Assembly (NCBI GenBank): GCA_003281365.1
Contig: QCCF01000001.1
Coordinates: 1 to 64,000, forward strand
DNA length: 64,000 bases
Origin: Prochlorococcus sp. AG-347-K18
GTDB taxonomy: Bacteria; Cyanobacteriota; Cyanobacteriia; PCC-6307; Cyanobiaceae
Reading direction: 5' to 3'
Shown: positions 23,640 through 59,293 of the stretch, one piece after another
Layout: each line of letters begins with the position of its first letter
Position numbering within the stretch: position 1 is the first letter of the stretch
The notes under the pieces: generated by a model
What the model saw: the letters and a program-made list of their open reading frames with translations, nothing else
Told to the model about the DNA's origin: nothing
The model's database searches: none
Made by a program: the position numbers and the translations under genes

Positions 23640-23716
23640 ATAATTAGAAATTTTTTTGATGAGAAGCACTTGCATTTCAAGAAAATAAAGAGAATATAAA
23701 GAAAATGATAATTTAA

Positions 23717-23896
23717 ATGGAATCAATTAAACCTCCCAAAAGAATTATTAAGAAACAGCTTAAAAATGTTAATAAAGCAATTATTGAAATTGCTGAAATG
23801 AAATTTAAAAATATTGAAGAAAAAGAAGAAAAATTAGATGCGCTTGTTTTTTTAAAGAATCAAATATTGAGGAAGGCCGAGAAGTTAGAAATTTAA
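23717..23896 (+). CDS. Small basic coiled-coil-like hypothetical protein (59 aa)
   Basis: ATG 23717 to TAA 23896 encodes 59 residues, nearly all helix-forming and charged: PPKRIIKKQLKNVNKAI, then EEKEEKLDALVFLKN and a basic end. It has no cysteine or membrane segment. The long uninterrupted charged frame supports a real gene, but there is no recognisable family. Confidence 0.45.
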   Translation: MESIKPPKRIIKKQLKNVNKAIIEIAEMKFKNIEEKEEKLDALVFLKNQILRKAEKLEI

Positions 23897-23947
23897 TAAC
23901 TAAATAATTTTAAAAAAGTTATCTTTAAATAATAAATTTATTTTTTT

Positions 23948-23966
23948 CTTAATAACTTCTTAACTC
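23948..23966 (+). promoter_or_regulatory. Weak PHO-box-like tandem repeat
   Basis: CTTAATAA and CTTAACTC are two near matches to the cyanobacterial PhoB half-site, separated by three bases, 75 bases before the small gene at 24041. Only two of three half-sites are seen and each has a mismatch, in AT-rich DNA, so chance is a real possibility. Confidence 0.2.
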
Positions 23967-24040
23967 AATAATCTTAGATTTTGTATGTCTTCATTATTTT
24001 ATGCCTTGAATATTGAAGACAATCTCATAAAAAAAAATAA

Positions 24041-24256
24041 ATGATTATAAAAAATTCACCTTCTACCAAAAGATCAAATCAAGCAAAAGACAAGGAGCAA
24101 ATCAAATATTCCTATAAAGAAAGTTTTAAAAGAGAAAATAAATCTCTTTTGAATGATTCGGAATTAATCAAAAATTACAATGATTATCTCAAATCACCTC
24201 AATCAAGGAGACTATACAAAATAACAGAGAGTGAATTTCATACAGACATAATTTAG
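24041..24256 (+). CDS. Small hydrophilic hypothetical protein (71 aa)
   Basis: A lysine/serine/asparagine-rich 71-residue frame with an ATG start, no cysteine and no membrane segment. The C-terminal half (LIKNYNDYLKSPQSRRLYKI) looks more ordered than the first 25 residues. It stands alone between two gaps and is convergent with the SDR gene. No family recognised. Confidence 0.45.
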   Translation: MIIKNSPSTKRSNQAKDKEQIKYSYKESFKRENKSLLNDSELIKNYNDYLKSPQSRRLYKITESEFHTDII

Positions 24257-24327
24257 GTCAACCTTTTTTTCTAATATTTTTAAATTCTTTATCAATCAGC
24301 CTTATTTAATATAAAAAAAGATTTATT

Positions 24328-48075: not shown

Positions 48076-48157
48076 GGGTCGGTGCCCGAGTGGTTAAAGG
48101 GGGCGGACTGTAAATCCGCTGGCTCTGCCTACGTTGGTTCAAATCCAACCCGGCCCA
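48076..48157 (+). tRNA. trnY: tRNA-Tyr (GTA)
   Basis: An 82-base class II tRNA with a long variable arm. Acceptor GGGTCGG pairs with CCGGCCC (one G-U), discriminator A at 48157. Anticodon stem GCGGA/TCCGC encloses CTGTAAA with anticodon GTA. T arm GTTGG-TTCAAAT-CCAAC. No CCA is encoded. Confidence 0.97.
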
Positions 48158-48167
48158 CTTTAAAATT

Positions 48168-48239
<72 letters not shown>

Positions 48240-48401
48240 TAGGCCGAAAGCAATCTACCGCAAAGCTATTGTAGAATTAAGAATGAATAAATAAATTTAT
48301 AATCAATAACAAATTTCATAATTTAAAAATTTCTTGATTTCAATTAAAACTTACTTAAATTTCCCAAAACCTATCATAATAATCAAAATATACAAAAAAC
48401 C

Positions 48402-49670
48402 ATAAAAAACCTTTTATCAAACAAGCCAACTTTTATTGATTTATTTGCTGGATGTGGTGGCCTCTCTCTGGGCCTAGAAAAAGCAGGGTTTTTTCCTCTA
48501 TACGTAAATGAGTTAAATAAAGATGCTTTAGAAACCTATCTTATTAATAGGGATTATCATTTTCCTCATTTAAGAAGAGATTTTTATTCTCAAGATATAA
48601 AAGAAGTAATTAAAGATAAAAAATATTTTTCTAATCTATTTTCAAAACTAAAAGAAGAGTTTGGGAGAGATTTTAAAAAAGATACAGTTGACTTAGTTAC
48701 AGGAGGTCCTCCATGTCAGGGTTTTTCTGGTATTGGAATAAGAAGATCCTATTCAGTTGATAAAGAGCAATTACCTTCAAATCATCTTTATCAAGATATG
48801 GCTTATTTTATTCACAAAGTTCAGCCAAAAATATTTCTTTTTGAGAATGTAGAGGGTTTAATAAGATCTCGTTGGACAAAATCTGGAATTAAAGGAGAAA
48901 TATTTAAGGATGTTTTAAATACCTTTAGAAATCTAAAAGGTTATGAGGTTAAATCCAAACTTGTTTATGCAAAAGATTATGGAGTCCCCCAAAATCGTCC
49001 ACGTATATTAATAATCGGGATAAAAAGAAAACTTCTTAAAAAGAAGAATATATCTTCAGACGCCTTAGAGGGAGGTTTTCTGCCAAATCCTACAAATGAT
49101 TACCCAAACTTAGAAGATGTTTTATCAGATCTAATTGATCAATCTTATGAAAATGGCGGAAGTACAGATATTTATCTTTCTGAGCCTAAATCAAATTGGC
49201 AAAAACTTATTAGATCGAATGAATTTAGTGGTAAATCCCTTAGCAAAGGAGATCAATTAAATGAACATAAATATAGTAATCACAAAGAATCCGTTATAAA
49301 TAGATTTGACTATATGATTAAAAATAACGGCGCGATCCCTGATACATATAAAACTAAGAAATTTGCACAAAGAGTTCTACCAAAAAAATGGAATGAAAAA
49401 GGTCCAAATATTACTGCTTGTTCTTTAGCTGATGATTTTGTTCATTTTTCTCAGCCCAGGTCATTAACAGTCAGAGAATGGGCAAGATTACAAACATTTC
49501 CTGATTGGTATTTATTTGCAGGTAAAAGGACTACTGGTGGAATAAGAAGAGCTGGGAATCCTAGAGAATCTATTTTTGATAGAGAATTACCAAAATATAC
49601 TCAAATTGGAAATGCAGTTCCTGTCAAATTAGCTTATGAAATAGGGAAACACTTTCTTAGTCTCATTTAA
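48402..49670 (+). CDS. C5-cytosine DNA methyltransferase, start codon not standard
   Basis: The frame contains a complete catalytic core: motif I FIDLFAGCGGLSLGLE, motif IV GGPPCQGFSGIG with the catalytic cysteine codon at 48714-48716, motif VI FENVEGL, motif VIII PQNRPRILIIG, and motifs IX-X SLTVREWARLQTFPDWY and QIGNAVPVKLAYEI. The frame is open from 48348, but the only ATG is at 48798, after motif IV. An ATA at 48402-48404 followed by AAA AAC is one base away from ATG and would give 422 residues. It is followed by a GIY-YIG-type nuclease-like gene. Confidence 0.85.
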   Translation: MKNLLSNKPTFIDLFAGCGGLSLGLEKAGFFPLYVNELNKDALETYLINRDYHFPHLRRDFYSQDIKEVIKDKKYFSNLFSKLKEEFGRDFKKDTVDLVTGGPPCQGFSGIGIRRSYSVDKEQLPSNHLYQDMAYFIHKVQPKIFLFENVEGLIRSRWTKSGIKGEIFKDVLNTFRNLKGYEVKSKLVYAKDYGVPQNRPRILIIGIKRKLLKKKNISSDALEGGFLPNPTNDYPNLEDVLSDLIDQSYENGGSTDIYLSEPKSNWQKLIRSNEFSGKSLSKGDQLNEHKYSNHKESVINRFDYMIKNNGAIPDTYKTKKFAQRVLPKKWNEKGPNITACSLADDFVHFSQPRSLTVREWARLQTFPDWYLFAGKRTTGGIRRAGNPRESIFDRELPKYTQIGNAVPVKLAYEIGKHFLSLI

Positions 49671-49726
49671 AAAATTTTTACTAATTAAGAAGTCAAGAAA
49701 TAATATAATTTAAAGTAATTATTTTC

Positions 49727-50794
49727 TTGAATTTGAAAGAACAATCTGAAAACTCTAAAAATAATATCGGTTATGTTTACTTTATGACTGAAAAGGATCT
49801 CTTTGAAAATCCAAGTGGTCCATATGTAAAAATTGGCAGAGTTAAAGGTAATGAAGAAGGTAGATCATCTATTGATCGCAGAAAGGAGCATCAAACTGGG
49901 AACCCTCGTCAAATAATTGTTCTCGATGAAGTTAAAACATATGCATCAGATTCGACGCTTGAATCAATAGTTCATCAAAGACTTGCTAATTTTAGAATTC
50001 ATGGTGAATGGTTTATTTATGGCGATGATGGAATTAAGCCTTATGTAGATTTAACAAAAAATATTAACAAGCATTTAGAAGCAGAATTAAAAAACGAAAA
50101 TTTGCTTGAAAAACTTTCTGCTCTTGAAGATAATGGCGAAGAAATAAATCCCTGTTCTGAATCTGAAGATATCCATCAATATTTACTTAAAATCAAATCA
50201 GATCTTCAAAAAATAAAAATTAGAAAAGAATTAGCAAGTATAAAACTAAAATCTTTTAATAAAAAAAACTGTCAAAATATTAAGGGAATATGTTCTTTCG
50301 AGAAATCGAAACCAGTTGAAAAATTTGATACAAAAACTTTCGAAAAAGATTATCCTCAAATTTTTGATAAATTATCAAAATTTTCAATCAACTCAAAACT
50401 TTCAATAAAAAAAGATACTAAATCTTTGGAAAGTAATGAATTAAATAAAATCAAAGAAATTATTGATTCACAAATCTTTGATGAAAAATTGATCTCAAAT
50501 AATCTTGAGAGAGATGATTATTCTATTGCTCTTCACAAAGAGTGGATAGATGCTCATGTTGAAATGCAACCTTTTGAATTTAAGAAAAAATTTTATGAGA
50601 ATAAATTAAGATTAATAATTGGTGAAAAATTGGGCATTAAAAATATTTGTTCCTGGAAAAGAAAATTATCAAAAAAAATAAGTAAGACAGATTTAAAAAA
50701 TTATGATCAAAAATTGGCGTCAAAATATATTAAATTAGGCGAACCTATTGTTAGGTTTAAAATCAATGACTTTAGACCATATCCATTTTCATAA
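49727..50794 (+). CDS. GIY-YIG superfamily (T5orf172/MUG113-like) nuclease-like protein
   Basis: A 355-residue protein with TTG start. Residues about 14-105 show the T5orf172/MUG113 pattern: YVYFMTEKDL (GIY strand), YVKIGRVKG (YIG strand), the arginine in RRKEHQTGNPRQIIVL, and LESIVHQRLANFRIHGEWF, whose glutamates would bind metal. The remaining 250 residues are lysine-rich with a helical middle and no recognised domain. It lies 56 bases after the methyltransferase on the same strand, as a restriction partner would. Nuclease activity is inferred from fold only. Confidence 0.75.
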   Translation: MNLKEQSENSKNNIGYVYFMTEKDLFENPSGPYVKIGRVKGNEEGRSSIDRRKEHQTGNPRQIIVLDEVKTYASDSTLESIVHQRLANFRIHGEWFIYGDDGIKPYVDLTKNINKHLEAELKNENLLEKLSALEDNGEEINPCSESEDIHQYLLKIKSDLQKIKIRKELASIKLKSFNKKNCQNIKGICSFEKSKPVEKFDTKTFEKDYPQIFDKLSKFSINSKLSIKKDTKSLESNELNKIKEIIDSQIFDEKLISNNLERDDYSIALHKEWIDAHVEMQPFEFKKKFYENKLRLIIGEKLGIKNICSWKRKLSKKISKTDLKNYDQKLASKYIKLGEPIVRFKINDFRPYPFS

Positions 50795-50803
50795 TTTTTT
50801 ATA

Positions 50804-50995
50804 ATGACACTATCTTCATACAGGATGCACAGAATATATCTTGCGGCGACCATGAATTATGGTCTTGGTTCTAATGATCCAGAAGAGCTGGCCTACTACA
50901 AGAAAATCAGAAAAGAGATGGATGACATGAAAAAGCACTCAGTAAAAAAAGGGATACCCCTAAATTGGGATATCCCAGAAATAATGGATAAATGA
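50804..50995 (+). CDS. Small conserved hypothetical protein (63 aa)
   Basis: A 63-residue frame starting at ATG 50804, with an alternative ATG at 50825 (MHRIYLAATMNYG). It has a short hydrophobic stretch then a charged helix (ELAYYKKIRKEMDDMKKHS) and ends IPEIMDK. I recognise the type as a picocyanobacterial hypothetical. Its TGA overlaps the next tiny ORF's ATG. Confidence 0.55.
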   Translation: MTLSSYRMHRIYLAATMNYGLGSNDPEELAYYKKIRKEMDDMKKHSVKKGIPLNWDIPEIMDK

Positions 50996-51092: not shown

Positions 51093-51875
51093 TCACTTAA
51101 CGGCGAAAGTTACTCCCATAACTGCAGTGATATCCTTCTTTATAGTAGTAGTATCATAAGAACCCCAGCTACTAACTCTCGTTGAATTTGGAACTGTGAT
51201 CTGAAAAACACCTGTGTTCACTTTCTTAAGGCCACCCACTTCAGATCCTGCCTGAAGCGCAATGGCCTCAGCTCTGATTCGAGCATCCTTTGCTGCTTTT
51301 GCGAGCATATCAACTCTTTTATCTGCAAGCTTTGAATATGTAAATTCCGGAGAGCTTGGTCTTACTAAAACACCATCACCAAGAAGTTCAGTTATCTTGC
51401 TGTGAGTCTTTTGAATTCGATAAACATCATTGCTCTGGATTTCAATACTTTGATAGGTGATCCATTCTGTTCTTATGATTTCATTGGTCTTTGGATGCTT
51501 GGTTTCATATTCTTTTATGCTGGCAGGTCCAAGATAAACTTCCTGTTTTATACCATCTTTAATTCCATTGGCTTTAAGGAAATTCATAGTCTTTTTCATT
51601 GACTCTTTATGCTTATTAAATGAGTCAATCTGAGTCTTGCCTGTAGCCCTGACCTGAACAGACCATTTAGCTATATCACTCTCAAAACTTTCAGTACTTG
51701 CTCCCGTAACAGTGATGGAATTCTCAACCATTCTGAACCCTCTCACAAGCACCGTGGAGGCGCCTATAAATCCTCCGAGAGATAAGACTGCCATTGCAAA
51801 AACAAGTGGCGGAGTGCGGCGTATAACGCTCAGAGAATCACCTGGCAGCGACCTAAGTCTCTTAATAATTTTCAT
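51093..51875 (-). CDS. SIMPL domain protein (DUF541)
   Basis: A 260-residue periplasmic protein: a basic N-terminus, one signal anchor (about residues 22-45), then the SIMPL domain (ITVTGASTESFESDIAKWSV, LADKRVDMLAKAAKDARIRAEA, EVGGLKKVNTGVF). The family is widespread with no firm function. Codons are visibly more GC-rich than in neighbouring genes, which suggests transfer from a higher-GC relative. The 477 bases upstream hold no clear gene. Confidence 0.85.
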   Translation of the reverse strand: MKIIKRLRSLPGDSLSVIRRTPPLVFAMAVLSLGGFIGASTVLVRGFRMVENSITVTGASTESFESDIAKWSVQVRATGKTQIDSFNKHKESMKKTMNFLKANGIKDGIKQEVYLGPASIKEYETKHPKTNEIIRTEWITYQSIEIQSNDVYRIQKTHSKITELLGDGVLVRPSSPEFTYSKLADKRVDMLAKAAKDARIRAEAIALQAGSEVGGLKKVNTGVFQITVPNSTRVSSWGSYDTTTIKKDITAVMGVTFAVK

Positions 51876-52352: not shown

Positions 52353-55300
52353 ATGAAAAGAAAAAAAATAACACCTTCGCAACTTTCACTTTTCAGCAGG
52401 AGTCCTGTAGTTGGTGCTTGGTGGAATGAGTTAAGGGTGCAAGGACTTTTTAAAGATAAAATCCCGGAAAGAAATGAGCTCGAAAAACAACTTTTAAAAG
52501 ATGGTATACGACATGAAGAATTACTGATTGCAAATCTGAAAAAACAAGGTTACAGAATTGCTGAACTCAGAGGCAAACAAACTGAAATTGACTATCAATC
52601 ATCAATTGACGCGATGGCAGAAGGCTACGACTTTATATGGCAAGCATCCCTAAGTAATGAAGAGATGAGAGGAACTGCAGATTTGTTAGAAAAGATAAAA
52701 GGATCTTCACCTTTTGGTGCCTGGACATATCAGCCAATTGAATGCAAACTTTCCTCTAATACAAAAACAACATTCCTAGTGCAAGCATGTTGTTACTGCG
52801 AATTACTAACACCAATACTTGGGAGCAAACCAAACAATTTTAAACTTTATTTGGGAGGAGGAAATTTTAAGGAATTTCAAATTGATAAATTTTGGTATTG
52901 GTATTTGCATTTAAGGGATCGTTTTAGAGATTTCCAAAATCATTTTGATTCGGACAAAAAGCCTATTGATACTCCGGGTGATCATGGCGATTGGACAGCA
53001 TTTATTGATGAGAGACTTGCCAAATCACGAGATTTGATGATGGTAGCAAAAATGCGACAAACTCAGCGTCTGAAACTTAAAGAAGCAGGTATTAATAGCA
53101 TTGATGATTTAGCACTATTAAAAGATGGTTCAAAAGTAAAAGGATTAAGAACAAAAATATTGAATGATCTAAAACAGCAAGCTGAATTACAAGTTTCTCC
53201 AAAGGGTTCGGATGGGAGACCAAATTATCTTTTAAAAAAAATCGAAAAAGATAAAGGATTGATGCTCTTAACTAAACCAGATGAAGGTGACATATGGTTT
53301 GATTTGGAGGGTATTCAGGATGCAGTTCTTGGAACCCAACTGGAATATCTTATTGGGATTTGTTTTAAAGAAAAAGATAGTATTCAAACTACATATAAAT
53401 CATGGTGGGCGCATAATGCCTTAGAAGAAAAAAAAGCTTTTGAAGATTGGGTTGATTGGGTTGAAAAAAGGTTAGAAAAATATCCAAATTTAAAAATTTA
53501 CCATTACGGTAGTTATGAAAAAAGTGCTATCAAACGCATAGCTCAGCAATACTCAACAAAAGAGGCGGTAATAGATAAATGGCTTCGTTCTAATTTATTA
53601 GTTGATCTTTTACCTATTGTCACCAGTGCAATTGTTTTGGGAGAAGATAGTTATTCAATAAAAAAAGTTGAGAAGCTTTATATGGATAAACGTGATGCAG
53701 ATGTCAAAACTGCAGGCGATTCATTAGTGGCATATAGGATCTGGTCGAACTCAGGTGAACCAAAAATTCCTGGCAAATCTCCTACAGGCAGTCCAAGACT
53801 TCAGATAATTGAAGATTACAATAGAGAAGATTGCGAATCTACTGAACGTCTTCAAAATTGGCTTATTAATCTAAAAGAAGCGCATGGTCTAACTTATGAA
53901 TTTCATGAAGAGGAGAAAAAAGAGGAACAATCTCAAGAAATCAAGCCGCTGGAATCTTTATCGCAAAAGTTATTGGAAGAGTTACCTGAAAGATATAAAA
54001 CACTGAAATCATCAGAATTAAATGATGAAACTTATGGGGAAAATAAAACAGGTAAAAGAGGAATGAGTTTTCGGGCACAACTTTTATTAAGTCATCTTTT
54101 AGCCTTTCATCACAGGGAAAATAAAATAGATTGGTGGAATTATTTTGAACGTAAGGAAATTGCGGGTCTTGACTCTAATGAATTACTAGAAGATAGCGAG
54201 GTCATAGAAGATGCTATCTGGCAAAAATGTGAGGAGAAAAAATCTGCAAGAACTAGTGCTTACTATCATTCATTCAAATTCAATCCAGAACAGCAACTTA
54301 AACTTTTCTGTGATAATAATTCAAGGGTAACATTGGAAATTGCCTCAACCAATTTAAGAATTGATGCTGTTGCGATTGATAATGAAAATGGTGAAATAAC
54401 TCTTAAATATCCTAAAAATAAGCTAGAAAAAAGAATTGAGGAAGGAGAATCAGAGGGCATTCCAAAATCTTCTTGTACATTAATTAAAAGGCCTGTAGAT
54501 ATTTCAAAACCATTACGTGATCGCCTTGAAAAGCAAGCTAATTCATGGATCAATGGAAATAAAAAATTACCAGTTGCATTAAGTAACTTTTTGGAATGCA
54601 ATTCTGTAAAAGGTTTGGTTGATTTAAATCAAAGAATCTATAAAAATGAGACTGATATCCCAAAATCTTTAGCTGAATTTTTAAAAAAAGAATCAGGAAT
54701 AACACTTGCGATACAAGGACCTCCAGGGACTGGCAAATCATCAGTTACAGCGAAATTAGTAACCGAGCTTCTAAAACTTGATAAAAAAATAGCCATAAGC
54801 TCAAATAGTAATCAGGCGATTAATAATTTACTTATAAAGACAAAAATTGTTTGCCAAGATCAAGACCTCGAAATTGAGATAATAAAAGCAACAAGTAATA
54901 AAAAAGATCAAGAGCTTTCAGAAAAAGATATTTTGCTCATACCTCCAAAATCTTTAACGCTTAAAGAAAGGGTAGTTGGCGGAACTACTTGGGTTTTCTC
55001 GAGAGAGGAAATGAAAAAAGCTTTTGATTTTCTAATTATTGACGAGGCAGGACAGATGTCCCTTGCGAATCTCCTCGTAATCGCTCAATGTGCAAATACA
55101 ATTATTTTAGTAGGGGATCAACAGCAACTTTCACAACCAACAAAAGCTGCTCATCCTGGCGAATCAGGGAAATCCTGTCTTGAATATTTAATTAAAGGTG
55201 CAAATGTTGTGCCTAAGGATAAGGGTATATTTTTAAATAAAAGTTGGCGTATGGAACCTTCATTAACAAATATTATTTCTGACCTTTTTTATGATAAAAA

Positions 55301-55865
55301 ATTAATAGGCTGTCATTCAAATAAGATTAACTCAATAAAGTGGGGCAAGCCGCTAACTTCTAAGTCAGGAGATTCTTTTCCAAACAAGGGAATTATCTTT
55401 AAAAAAATTGAACATAATGGCTGCGGTGTAAAAAGTTTTGAAGAAATAAAATTTATAGAACAAATAATTGATTCTCTTTTAGGCGGAAGTTTTGAGTATG
55501 CACAATTTGATAAAAATATAACTGGTGAAATTACAGCTAAACACATCTTGGTGACTGCTCCATATAATGTTCAGGTGAATCTTTTAGAACAGAGATTAAA
55601 AGGCAAGGCCAGAGTTGGAACTGTTGATCGCTTTCAAGGAGAGGAAGCTCCAATTGCTATACACTCATTAACTTCAAGTTCGGGAGATAATGCGCCTAGA
55701 GGTATTGACTTTTTATTAGAGCCAAACAGACTAAATGTTGCTATTAGCAGGGCTCAATGTTTATCCATAATTGTTGGATCCCCCAACCTTGCGACAGGAT
55801 TAATTAATACTGTAGATGAAGCTGAAAAGATTAATAGACTTTGCAGACTGATGATGCTCGATTAG
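52353..55865 (+). CDS. RecB-like nuclease / RNase H-like / Upf1-like helicase fusion (TM0106 type)
   Basis: An 1170-residue three-part protein. Residues 1-200 are a TM0106-type RecB-like nuclease with PD-(D/E)xK residues D110, E130 and K132 (GTADLL, IECK). Residues 310-505 are a YprB-like RNase H-fold exonuclease: WFDLEG (D317, E319), IYHYGSYEKSAI, LLVDLLPI and DYNREDCEST. Residues about 785-1165 are an SF1 helicase: Walker A GPPGTGKSS (789-797), Walker B DEAG (897-900), QGEEAPI (1095) and NVAISRA. It suggests nucleic-acid processing or defence; substrate unknown. Confidence 0.85.
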   Translation: MKRKKITPSQLSLFSRSPVVGAWWNELRVQGLFKDKIPERNELEKQLLKDGIRHEELLIANLKKQGYRIAELRGKQTEIDYQSSIDAMAEGYDFIWQASLSNEEMRGTADLLEKIKGSSPFGAWTYQPIECKLSSNTKTTFLVQACCYCELLTPILGSKPNNFKLYLGGGNFKEFQIDKFWYWYLHLRDRFRDFQNHFDSDKKPIDTPGDHGDWTAFIDERLAKSRDLMMVAKMRQTQRLKLKEAGINSIDDLALLKDGSKVKGLRTKILNDLKQQAELQVSPKGSDGRPNYLLKKIEKDKGLMLLTKPDEGDIWFDLEGIQDAVLGTQLEYLIGICFKEKDSIQTTYKSWWAHNALEEKKAFEDWVDWVEKRLEKYPNLKIYHYGSYEKSAIKRIAQQYSTKEAVIDKWLRSNLLVDLLPIVTSAIVLGEDSYSIKKVEKLYMDKRDADVKTAGDSLVAYRIWSNSGEPKIPGKSPTGSPRLQIIEDYNREDCESTERLQNWLINLKEAHGLTYEFHEEEKKEEQSQEIKPLESLSQKLLEELPERYKTLKSSELNDETYGENKTGKRGMSFRAQLLLSHLLAFHHRENKIDWWNYFERKEIAGLDSNELLEDSEVIEDAIWQKCEEKKSARTSAYYHSFKFNPEQQLKLFCDNNSRVTLEIASTNLRIDAVAIDNENGEITLKYPKNKLEKRIEEGESEGIPKSSCTLIKRPVDISKPLRDRLEKQANSWINGNKKLPVALSNFLECNSVKGLVDLNQRIYKNETDIPKSLAEFLKKESGITLAIQGPPGTGKSSVTAKLVTELLKLDKKIAISSNSNQAINNLLIKTKIVCQDQDLEIEIIKATSNKKDQELSEKDILLIPPKSLTLKERVVGGTTWVFSREEMKKAFDFLIIDEAGQMSLANLLVIAQCANTIILVGDQQQLSQPTKAAHPGESGKSCLEYLIKGANVVPKDKGIFLNKSWRMEPSLTNIISDLFYDKKLIGCHSNKINSIKWGKPLTSKSGDSFPNKGIIFKKIEHNGCGVKSFEEIKFIEQIIDSLLGGSFEYAQFDKNITGEITAKHILVTAPYNVQVNLLEQRLKGKARVGTVDRFQGEEAPIAIHSLTSSSGDNAPRGIDFLLEPNRLNVAISRAQCLSIIVGSPNLATGLINTVDEAEKINRLCRLMMLD

Positions 55866-57769: not shown

Positions 57770-59293
57770 TTACTCAAATTCACTAATTAAATCTAAAAGT
57801 TGATTTGAATGAGTTCCCTCAATTGTACTTGAATAGTGATAGGAAATAAAATGAGGTTTACCTTCACTATTTATTTTATTGTAGAAATAACATGCATTTT
57901 TTATTTTTTTGGGAGCCTCTGCAATTTGCATAAATATTTCTAATTTTATAGGCCTCAAATTGATTGAAGAAATTAAATATAAATTATCTTTAAACAATAT
58001 ATATGGTATGTTTTTGGATTTTCTTTTAAAAATAGTGTGAGATCCCATAAGATTAGAATATTGGTGTAAAATTTTTTGTTCTGAAAAAACTTCTGAAGAT
58101 TCAACTCTAATTAATTCTTTTTTATCCCAAATATCCCCCATATTATTTTTAAATAATTCAAGCAATTTAAAAAGTTTATTATTCATATTGACAGCTTCTT
58201 CAGCGTCAACCCATGAACCATGAGCCTCTTGGGTATTGCGAATTTCTAAGGCAGAAAGAAAAATATTTACAAGTTTTTTATTACTCAAAACTTTGGGCAA
58301 CAATAACTCATTATCTTTAAATATATCCTTACACAATTCTTTATCTTGATCTAATAAAATTCTTGTTTGCTTACTAATAAGAGCATAAATCTGTACCCAA
58401 TCTCCAAAGGTAAGTCTTTTAAATTGAATTTTTTTATCGTCTTTTAAAACATTCTTTATTAAAGAAAACTTTTTCTCATTTTCTCGGAAGGCTCCAAAAT
58501 ATATTGTGGAAAGAAAAGCAACAGCACATTCAAAAAATTTCAAAAGCAATCTGAACTTAGCTAAATCGTCATCTTTCAGTGATATGTATTCTCGTAGCAC
58601 TATCGCCAAAGGGAAAGGGTTTGTGTCTATCCATTTCTCGAAAACATTTTGATCTTTAAAATTTTCATTACTTTTATCTTCTGTATTTTTTGATAATATT
58701 TTATTTATATGTTGCTTATTTAAGAGTTCAGCACATTCCAAGCATTGTTCAGCTAAATTACAACTTATTTCCCCAATTTCTATTAAAGGTAATACTAATT
58801 CATTAAATAGCTTTGGATGCTGAGAAAATGCTTCGAAAATAGTTGAACCCCTAGAAATTTCGTCCCTTATTTTGCGAATAGCTACGAATAACTTTTTATT
58901 ATCATTTAATTGTTGCGCACATATTTGTAATGCATCCAAAATTGGGGTTCCACTTTTCAGCAATAATTGAAAATCAAAAAAAAATTTTGAAATATCATTT
59001 AAATAGCTGAGTCTCATACCTATATTTTTGAGAGATTCAACTAGTATTCCTTCTTCTTCACCTTTTTTTAAAACCTCTAAAATTAGAGGATCACACAATG
59101 AGTGTTCTTCAAATGATTCAACTAATGATGCACCCCTTCTAATATCATCTATTACTTTTGACAAGATTTTTTGAAACTTTTCATCGCATTGCGGCGAGCT
59201 AGAAAAATTCAATAAACTTTCGCAGATTGGAATTCCTGAGCACAGAGATGTGGAAAAGTAACTATAAAAAATATCTAAATTTGTTTTTTGCAA
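57770..59293 (-). CDS. Soluble protein with two tandem GspF/PilC-like domains
   Basis: A 507-residue protein with TTG start. Residues about 9-93 (SLCSGIPICESLL, DDIRRGASLVESFEEH) and 104-190 (LLLKSGTPILDALQICAQ, RDEISRGSTIFEAFSQHP, LIEIGEI) both show the T2SSF helical pattern of type II secretion and type IV pilus platform proteins. The three membrane helices normally flanking these domains are absent. The C-terminal 300 residues are unrecognised, mostly helical, with an SSTIEGTHSNQL end. No other secretion gene is near. Confidence 0.65.
   Translation of the reverse strand: MQKTNLDIFYSYFSTSLCSGIPICESLLNFSSSPQCDEKFQKILSKVIDDIRRGASLVESFEEHSLCDPLILEVLKKGEEEGILVESLKNIGMRLSYLNDISKFFFDFQLLLKSGTPILDALQICAQQLNDNKKLFVAIRKIRDEISRGSTIFEAFSQHPKLFNELVLPLIEIGEISCNLAEQCLECAELLNKQHINKILSKNTEDKSNENFKDQNVFEKWIDTNPFPLAIVLREYISLKDDDLAKFRLLLKFFECAVAFLSTIYFGAFRENEKKFSLIKNVLKDDKKIQFKRLTFGDWVQIYALISKQTRILLDQDKELCKDIFKDNELLLPKVLSNKKLVNIFLSALEIRNTQEAHGSWVDAEEAVNMNNKLFKLLELFKNNMGDIWDKKELIRVESSEVFSEQKILHQYSNLMGSHTIFKRKSKNIPYILFKDNLYLISSINLRPIKLEIFMQIAEAPKKIKNACYFYNKINSEGKPHFISYHYSSTIEGTHSNQLLDLISEFE

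What the first reader, a model, noticed from the sequence alone, without database searches (positions are those of the whole stretch)
48402..50794. Candidate restriction-modification or defence pair: C5 methyltransferase plus GIY-YIG/T5orf172-like nuclease
A complete C5-cytosine methyltransferase is followed after 56 bases, same strand, by a 355-residue protein with a T5orf172/MUG113 GIY-YIG-type N-terminus and a large unknown C-terminal region. Prochlorococcus genomes rarely carry restriction systems. The nuclease is unlike classical type II enzymes and could represent a new restriction or phage-exclusion nuclease type; its C-terminal 250 residues may give specificity.
Basis: partly seen in the sequence, partly recalled or inferred. 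Interest (0 to 1): 0.68.

Follow-up and report, generated by a model that had tools for sequence, protein, structure and literature searches.

The report
Roving nuclease beside unrelated DNA methylase
Two neighbouring genes in an ocean cyanobacterium that look like a restriction pair are probably not one: the DNA-marking enzyme belongs with a different, well-known kind of cutter, and the nuclease next to it is an independent gene found beside many different anti-virus systems.

Summary
In detail: an intact C5-cytosine methyltransferase (48402-49670) is followed 56 bases later by an intact 355-residue T5orf172/GIY-YIG protein (NUC, 49727-50794). The reading as a restriction-modification pair is poorly supported. 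Close relatives of the methyltransferase accompany EcoRII-C-like or MvaI/BcnI-family restriction enzymes, and the window's own genome has an EcoRII-C-like gene on another contig. NUC is only a fragment in 2 of the 5 genomes that keep the methyltransferase. Of 17 full-length NUC genes in 266 genomes of the genus, 15 are not beside this methyltransferase; 13 of the 17 are near other recognised defence genes (type I, III, IIG, IV, BREX, GmrSD-like and others). Distant full-length relatives occur in marine archaea and actinobacteria; no full-length relative was found in the phage and viral collections searched. NUC is a GIY-YIG domain plus two tandem copies of a C-terminal domain, under purifying selection. 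Best reading: a stand-alone nuclease carried as cargo of tRNA-linked islands, probably anti-phage; a homing-type role is the main rival. Gene-limited exchange of NUC hints at homing, but small controls show it for other defence genes too. The methyltransferase lacks ATG, GTG and TTG starts; an ATA codon is conserved in 5 of 5 copies.

The parts
48076..48158 (+). tRNA-Tyr (GTA), left edge of the hotspot
   Evidence: ARAGORN
48167..48240 (+). tRNA-Thr (GGT). Variable cargo follows it in many relatives. Partial 3' copies (about nt 28-74) of it or of tRNA-Pro lie beside cargo in relatives
48402..49670 (+). C5-cytosine methyltransferase. Probable ATA start at 48402. Placed near the EcoRII/MvaI class of type II systems by its companions in relatives
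   Evidence: Pfam/NCBIfam; start codon; companions
49727..50794 (+). NUC: T5orf172/GIY-YIG nuclease with tandem C-terminal domain
49769..50026 (+). GIY-YIG (T5orf172) domain of NUC, residues about 15-100
50135..50476 (+). first C-terminal repeat of NUC, residues about 137-250
50498..50791 (+). second C-terminal repeat of NUC, residues 258-355. The part from 50598 on (codons 291-355) survives as a deletion scar at the hotspot of three genomes (G197, G079, G103)
50804..50995 (+). 63-residue conserved ORF, right flank of the hotspot
51093..51875 (-). SIMPL (DUF541) protein gene, right flank

Best explanation
The two genes are neighbours in a tRNA-Thr-linked island of Prochlorococcus, not one system. 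(1) The methyltransferase is the modification half of an EcoRII/MvaI-class type II system. In this genome a likely restriction partner, an EcoRII-C-like protein, is on another contig (C19) and not beside it; that it is the functional partner is inferred. (2) NUC is an autonomous gene. Its N-terminal GIY-YIG domain should cut DNA and its two tandem C-terminal domains should bind it. It needs no one dedicated methyltransferase, because it occurs beside C5, type I, type III, IIG and BREX modification enzymes and also beside systems without one. The most likely role is a stand-alone restriction-type nuclease against phage or other incoming DNA, recognising a feature that host DNA lacks. Shown: gene family, conserved active site, tandem domain, purifying selection, changing defence neighbours and decay in some genomes. 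Inferred: DNA cleavage, target and anti-phage effect.
For: MTase side. EcoRII-C-like ORF next to the same MTase in G165 (E 1.7e-5, 25.4 bits, cut-off 25) and an MvaI/BcnI enzyme in G070 (5.7e-44); MvaI/BcnI also in G048, about 4 kb from its MTase; EcoRII-C match in the window's own genome on C19 (E 9.1e-7), 56% identical to that of G165. The two best plasmid homologues (52% and 48%) are directly followed by annotated MvaI/BcnI enzymes. NUC side. 17 full-length copies in 266 genomes, 15 not beside this MTase. Recognised defence or restriction-modification genes near 15 of 17, nine kinds by my count. Six close NUC copies (86-93% DNA identity; dN at most 0.085 among the five of them compared) stand beside six different systems with mostly non-homologous flanks. 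NUC is optional for a system: 13 of 16 genomes with an HsdR match have no NUC match. Two distant relatives whose neighbours I scanned lie near a C5 MTase plus LlaJI-type enzyme (L124, marine archaeon) and a NERD-helicase (L118, actinobacterium). None of 43 viral-contig candidates was confirmed; no match in 50,697 phage records.
Against: No activity or phage data. No PADLOC model matches NUC. Defence neighbours may merely reflect that NUC and defence genes share tRNA hotspots; no location-matched control was made. Two of 17 loci show no recognised defence gene (G147, G238). The actinobacterial loci L116 and L117 show no obvious defence neighbour, though their neighbours were not scanned. NUC or a remnant lies beside the MTase in 5 of 5 carriers, which a functional link would also give. 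A 705-residue AAA/WYL gene occurs in 4 of 200 genomes, and all 4 carry NUC nearby, so stable partners may exist in some lineages. A 291-residue ORF beside the MTase in G115 is unidentified.
Confidence: 0.47

Rival explanations
1. NUC is a homing-type (selfish) endonuclease or cargo-exchange nuclease. It cuts islands that lack it and is copied in, carrying or swapping neighbouring defence genes.
For: T5orf172 nucleases are proposed homing endonucleases at boundaries of exchange in phages (PMC10448857, passages). N-terminal nuclease plus tandem C-terminal domains. DNA homology among close NUC copies is mostly confined to the ORF, more often than in the small bait controls. Breakpoints fall at the NUC stop codon in G027 versus G139 and in G029 versus NUC-minus G126, G090 and G193. 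Decay: 6 genomes with only an internal remnant, one undecidable.
Against: Gene-limited homology is not peculiar to NUC: it was seen in 3 of 24 HsdR pairs (overhangs 5-141 bp) and in 1 or 2 of 6 pairs of a 778-residue helicase. No simple insertion into a conserved site was found: upstream genes differ in the NUC-minus alleles. No full-length relative in the phage or viral collections searched.
Confidence: 0.3
2. One reading: the MTase and NUC are the modification and restriction halves of one new type II-like system.
For: Same strand, 56 bases apart. NUC, a contig-cut NUC or a remnant is beside the MTase in 5 of 5 carriers among 200 genomes, including G048 where the locus lies near tRNA-Phe rather than tRNA-Thr.
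Against: 15 of 17 full-length NUC genes are not beside this MTase. 4 of the 5 MTase carriers also have an EcoRII-C or MvaI/BcnI enzyme. NUC is a fragment in G070 and G048 while the MTase stays under strong constraint. The two closest plasmid MTases have MvaI/BcnI partners and no neighbour annotated as GIY-YIG, though some neighbours are hypothetical.
Confidence: 0.08
3. NUC is a modification-dependent (type IV) nuclease like the winged-helix/GIY-YIG fusions Ahi29725I and Apa233I, its tandem C-terminal domains reading modified bases. A special case of the best explanation.
For: wH-GIY-YIG fusions are reported as 6mA-dependent enzymes and wH fusions mostly lack an adjacent methyltransferase (PMC11037411, passages). 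In the full-length model the second repeat runs helix, strand, two short helices, strands, an order that winged helices also show (recalled).
Against: Domain order is reversed (nuclease first). The single-repeat model is poor (pLDDT 77.3, pTM 0.34) and shows no strands; no solved fold matches with confidence. Many NUC neighbours are adenine methyltransferases, which a general 6mA reader could not tolerate.
Confidence: 0.1

Closest known systems
T5orf172 (PF10544) / MUG113 (PF13455) GIY-YIG nucleases, including the proposed homing endonucleases of phage ICP1
   Same: N-terminal domain by profile and by predicted fold; nuclease at one end, repeated putative DNA-binding domains at the other (PMC10448857, passages)
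   Different: C-terminal repeats match no Pfam family at E up to 1; full-length relatives seen in cells, not in the phage or viral collections searched; beside defence systems rather than essential phage genes
EcoRII / MvaI-BcnI class type II restriction-modification
   Same: The MTase is C5 type and its relatives accompany EcoRII-C-like or MvaI/BcnI enzymes
   Different: In the window no such enzyme is at the locus; an EcoRII-C-like gene is on another contig and NUC lies downstream of the MTase
wH-GIY-YIG type IV enzymes (Ahi29725I, Apa233I; PMC11037411, passages)
   Same: GIY-YIG nuclease with an extra putative DNA-binding part and no fixed methyltransferase
   Different: Order of domains reversed; tandem C-terminal domain; no modification test
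Tycheposons of Prochlorococcus (described second-hand in PMC10872708, passages; original not held, and recalled)
   Same: tRNA-linked cargo; NUC cassettes in G154, G082 and G238 lie between copies of the 3' part of tRNA-Pro, or the tRNA itself
   Different: No partial tRNA copy seen at the window locus and no recombinase gene recognised beside it; the link is inferred

Membership tests
T5orf172 / GIY-YIG nuclease | profile match over curated cut-off | tested here: met
   T5orf172 31.6 bits (cut-off 20), MUG113 31.4 (22.3)
T5orf172 / GIY-YIG nuclease | conserved GIY tyrosine, (K/Y)IG, arginine and glutamate | tested here: met
   Y18, K35, G37, R51, E79 invariant in 27 of 27 sequences, window included, (roles assigned from recalled family knowledge)
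T5orf172 / GIY-YIG nuclease | GIY-YIG fold | tested here: met
   Full-length model pLDDT 89.0; N-terminal part matches predicted viral GIY-YIG/T5orf172 proteins, best E 2e-7
T5orf172 / GIY-YIG nuclease | DNA cleavage | not testable with these tools
   needs protein
Type II restriction-modification with NUC as the restriction enzyme of the adjacent MTase | nuclease and methyltransferase occur as an exclusive linked pair | tested here: not met
   15 of 17 full NUC genes not beside this MTase; NUC a fragment in 2 of 5 MTase carriers
Type II restriction-modification with NUC as the restriction enzyme of the adjacent MTase | methylation protects against the nuclease | not testable with these tools
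   needs enzyme and MTase
C5-cytosine DNA methyltransferase | profile match and catalytic motifs | tested here: met
   PF00145 8.8e-63; FAGCGG, GGPPCQGFS, ENVEG, QNRPR and QIGNAV read (their roles recalled)
EcoRII/MvaI-class type II system (the MTase) | partner restriction enzyme of that class | tested here: inconclusive
   Present in G165, G070, G048 and on contig C19 of the window's genome, but not beside the window MTase; target motif not determined
Homing endonuclease | insertion in a conserved site, with NUC-minus alleles holding both flanks joined | tested here: inconclusive
   3' flank shared with NUC-minus G126, G090 and G193 from the stop codon on, 5' flank different
Homing endonuclease | gene-limited exchange beyond that of other island genes | tested here: inconclusive
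   NUC 26 of 40 ordered pairs versus 23 of 385 of other ORFs (116 of these cut by a locus end), but the loci were chosen by NUC; baits: 3 of 24 HsdR pairs and 1 or 2 of 6 helicase pairs, many pairs cut by the held sequence
Type IV wH-GIY-YIG | winged-helix domain | tested here: inconclusive
Tycheposon-type cassette | cargo between copies of a tRNA 3' part | tested here: inconclusive
   met in G154, G082, G238; no partial copy found in the window stretch 40001-64000 at E up to 1e-3
PADLOC-listed defence protein | match to a PADLOC model | tested here: not met
   NUC has 0 families at E up to 1

The most novel reading that the evidence does not exclude
NUC is a cellular homing-type nuclease that drives the exchange of whole defence systems between tRNA-linked islands of Prochlorococcus: a gene drive for immunity, with one nuclease family found beside about nine kinds of defence system and breakpoints at its own stop codon.
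Probability: 0.2. Interest if true: 0.82.

Novelty: new variant of a known kind. Interest (0 to 1): 0.5.

Why it matters
It corrects a tempting misreading: adjacency of a methyltransferase and a nuclease is not proof of a restriction system. It also points to a family of nucleases, not matched by the defence library used here, that recurs beside many unrelated defence systems in abundant ocean photosynthesisers and, in distant form, in marine archaea and actinobacteria. If autonomous, it is a candidate anti-phage nuclease; if homing-type, it would offer a mechanism for how defence islands are shuffled.

Tried and rejected
Vsr-like mismatch repair partner of a C5 methyltransferase: set aside because NUC also occurs beside non-C5 systems. 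Phage-borne homing gene: no full-length relative in viral contigs or phage records, though single-domain T5orf172 relatives in viruses are many; plasmids gave only two weak domain matches. Insertion-site test at the core-gene junction of G197: that NUC copy lacks its first 46 residues, so it says little. The 'empty' alleles of G197, G079 and G103 first looked like an ancestral site; they are better read as deletion scars, because the remaining codons 291-355 belong to a part conserved in the family. The ascertainment bias was recognised; the bait control shows that gene-limited homology is not peculiar to NUC, but it is small and many pairs are cut by the held sequence, so it weakens rather than removes the argument for homing. 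The MTase was first taken to have lost its restriction enzyme; one search found an EcoRII-C-like gene on contig C19, so 'orphan' was dropped. Fold searches gave no trusted match for the C-terminal half (best Z 5.0, in the range the tool calls common); the model of one repeat alone was too poor to search. The type IV enzyme as bait gave only one close relative (G026, 67%), so it was no use as a control.
Full report
What is there. The frame with the C5 methyltransferase is open at 48348-49670 and NUC runs 49727-50794, both + strand, 56 bases apart. The MTase matches PF00145 (8.8e-63) and TIGR00675. NUC matches T5orf172 (2.4e-7) and MUG113 (2.9e-7) within residues 15-97 and nothing else in Pfam at E up to 1. 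It matches no PADLOC model. tRNA-Tyr and tRNA-Thr lie just upstream. The named near relatives are Prochlorococcus records.

Start of the methyltransferase. No ATG, GTG or TTG precedes motif I. Five genomes of 200, the window's included, hold close copies (93% identity or more). In all five an ATA codon stands 8-9 codons before TFIDLFAGCGG. In G165 it is the only start codon of table 11 between the last in-frame stop and the motif, so no other is common to all five. The gene is under strong purifying selection (dN/dS 0.041-0.080 over 10 pairs). I infer an ATA start.

The methyltransferase has other companions. In G165 an EcoRII-C-like ORF (E 1.7e-5, just over cut-off) lies upstream on the same strand; in G070 an MvaI/BcnI enzyme (5.7e-44) lies divergently next to it. 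PF15515 was found in 3 of 200 genomes of the genus; two of these, G070 and G048 (about 4 kb from its MTase), are among the five MTase carriers, and the window's genome has none. PF09019, searched in those five genomes, was found in G165 and in the window's own genome, there on the 3-kb contig C19 as an intact 313-residue ORF, 56% identical to that of G165. So 4 of 5 carriers have such an enzyme. In G115 none was found, and the 291-residue ORF beside its MTase is unidentified. Of 4391 plasmid records that match the MTase I examined the two best (52% and 48%): both have an annotated MvaI/BcnI enzyme directly downstream. The recognition motif was not determined; a CCWGG or CCSGG type site is a recalled expectation.

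NUC is largely independent of the methyltransferase. A profile search of 266 genomes of the genus found NUC in 27: 17 full-length, 2 cut by a contig end (G115, G151), 1 lacking its first 46 residues (G197), 6 with only an internal remnant, and 1 fragment at a contig start (G005, undecidable). Of the 17, only those of G000 and G165 stand beside this MTase: 13 others are in genomes without a close MTase, and for G238 and G262 no MTase homology lies within 6 kb. NUC is a fragment in G070 and G048, which keep the MTase. Against my reading: NUC, a contig-cut NUC or a remnant is beside the MTase in 5 of 5 carriers.

Its neighbours. Annotated neighbours of full-length NUC: C5 MTase (window, G165), another C5 MTase with an HTH (G154; its homologue in G082), type I HsdM/S/R (G118), type III-like helicase and MTase (G072), BrxB/BrxC with PglX on the same contig (G078), type IIG with DrmD-like helicase (G029), type IIG with Snf2 helicase (G262, locus L100), type IV enzyme (G164), GmrSD-like (G135), NsnB-like/AAA protein (G159), proteins with an N6 MTase domain (G148, G139, G027). 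For G147 (an exonuclease I-like gene) and G238 (a DUF6998 gene) no defence gene was recognised. That is 15 of 17; not every ORF of every locus was scanned. NUC is not needed by these systems: of 16 genomes of 151 with an HsdR match (one of them, G143, weak), 13 have no NUC match, one has it linked (G118), one on another contig (G147), one as a fragment (G005). Some lineages may have steady partners: a 705-residue AAA/WYL gene occurs in 4 of 200 genomes, and all four carry NUC in the same locus.

Islands. Many NUC copies lie in the tRNA-Thr hotspot. In G154, G082 and G238 the NUC cassette lies between copies of the 3' part of tRNA-Pro (about 46 nt), one of them in G082 being the tRNA itself; partial tRNA-Thr copies occur in G115, G070 and others. 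This resembles tycheposons (PMC10872708, passages; the original paper is not held, and is recalled). The window stretch 40001-64000 has no partial copy at E up to 1e-3. In G197, G079 and G103 the hotspot is tRNA-Thr, about 45 bp, then NUC from window position 50598 on: one shared deletion junction with a short A/T-rich similarity.

Protein. Y18, K35, G37, R51, E79, H55, N59 and H83 are invariant in 27 of 27 sequences, the window and 26 relatives, including archaeal and actinobacterial ones at 21-24% identity. The AlphaFold2 model (pLDDT 89.0, pTM 0.83) has the N-terminal domain and two similar C-terminal units; the units are homologous to each other (hhalign probability 98.2, E 3.6e-14). The N-terminal part matches predicted viral GIY-YIG/T5orf172 proteins (best E 2e-7). 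No confident match to a solved structure was found. NUC is under purifying selection (0.076-0.319 in pairs with dS under 0.5).

Distribution. In the GTDB genome collection 80 stretches matched a search pattern and 32 encode relatives: 20 from Prochlorococcus, 12 from others, mainly marine actinobacteria and Euryarchaeota/Poseidoniales; the pattern search is not exhaustive. I scanned neighbours in two distant loci, chosen by eye: L124 (Poseidoniales) has a C5 MTase and a LlaJI-type enzyme within about 7 kb, and in L118 (actinobacterium) a NERD-helicase follows. In 400 genomes of the family only the window's genus gave matches over most of the profile; six other genomes gave domain-size ones. 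None of 43 viral-contig candidates was confirmed; no phage record matched.

Exchange. Among six close NUC copies (86-93% DNA identity; G164, G118, G029, G072, G078, G262) beside six different systems (two of them IIG-plus-helicase systems of only 21-22% identity in the IIG protein), homology is mostly limited to the ORF. Over 15 pairs the 5' end lies between 36 bases before and 78 after the called start, but for G078-G164 (140 before); the 3' end lies within 9 bp of the stop in 11, 58-84 bp beyond in 3, and 1548 bp beyond in 1. G027 and G139 are 97% identical upstream and part at the NUC stop codon. NUC-minus G126, G090 and G193 share the genes downstream of NUC in G029 from that stop codon on, at 95%; upstream G126 has a different helicase (28%) and IIG-like protein (25%). 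In these NUC-chosen loci 26 of 40 ordered NUC pairs and 23 of 385 pairs of other island ORFs (116 of them cut by a locus end) have both overhangs at most 100 bp; that comparison is biased by the choice of loci. With HsdR as bait, 3 of 24 pairs are gene-limited (overhangs 5-141 bp), while in the other 21 the 5' end is near the gene start but the 3' homology runs to the end of the held sequence; with a 778-residue helicase as bait, 1 or 2 of 6 pairs are. So gene-limited exchange is not peculiar to NUC, but may be commoner in it; it is weak evidence for homing.

Mechanism and novelty. The best-supported account is an autonomous nuclease carried as island cargo, probably anti-phage; homing is the main rival. 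T5orf172 proteins as proposed homing enzymes and GIY-YIG fusions as type IV enzymes are in print (PMC10448857, PMC11037411; passages read). I saw no paper on this family or its defence association in the listings of searches; these cover open-licence papers only.

Noticed in passing
48330-48438: MTase with no ATG/GTG/TTG start; ATA conserved in 5 of 5 copies, with a stretch like TTTCTTGATTTCAATT conserved about 60-70 bases upstream.
   Followed up: partly
52353-55865: 1170-residue protein: TM0106-type RecB-like nuclease joined to an IGHMBP2-like helicase; its helicase part matches PADLOC MkoA (2.1e-50).
   Followed up: no
57770-59293: Type II secretion F-domain protein (3.9e-23) whose residues about 189-504 resemble (27-34%) parts of the 965-996-residue N6-methylase-domain proteins next to NUC in L078-L080.
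   Followed up: no
L237 38-979 and 1140-1185 (own genome, contig C19): EcoRII-C-like gene beside a copy of the 3' part of tRNA-Pro, on a 3-kb contig.
   Followed up: partly
L067 1704-11199: Five copies of the 3' part of tRNA-Pro within 9.5 kb, an apparent array of small cassettes.
   Followed up: no
L081 5600-6015, L084 6241-6656, L085 6089-6504: Same deletion junction (window 50598) leaving NUC codons 291-355 in three genomes, one of them (G103) clearly diverged in core genes.
   Followed up: partly
23640-24327: Junction of two core genes, only a few bases in many of 20 relatives searched, holds a 690-bp insert here, a truncated NUC in G197 and an insert of about 400 bp in G139.
   Followed up: partly
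L100 9363-9974: A second, small T5orf172 protein (203 residues, 7.9e-16) follows NUC about 330 bp downstream.
   Followed up: no
L072 6265-7743, L071 2652-4103, L165-L167: Module of three small proteins (about 151, 175 and 164 residues, starts that look like signal peptides) shared with and without NUC; relatives of the 175-residue protein in 37 of 200 genomes.
   Followed up: no
L078 9402-11519 and homologues in L077, L079, L080: 705-residue protein with AAA_33 and WYL matches, in 4 of 200 genomes, all of them NUC carriers.
   Followed up: no
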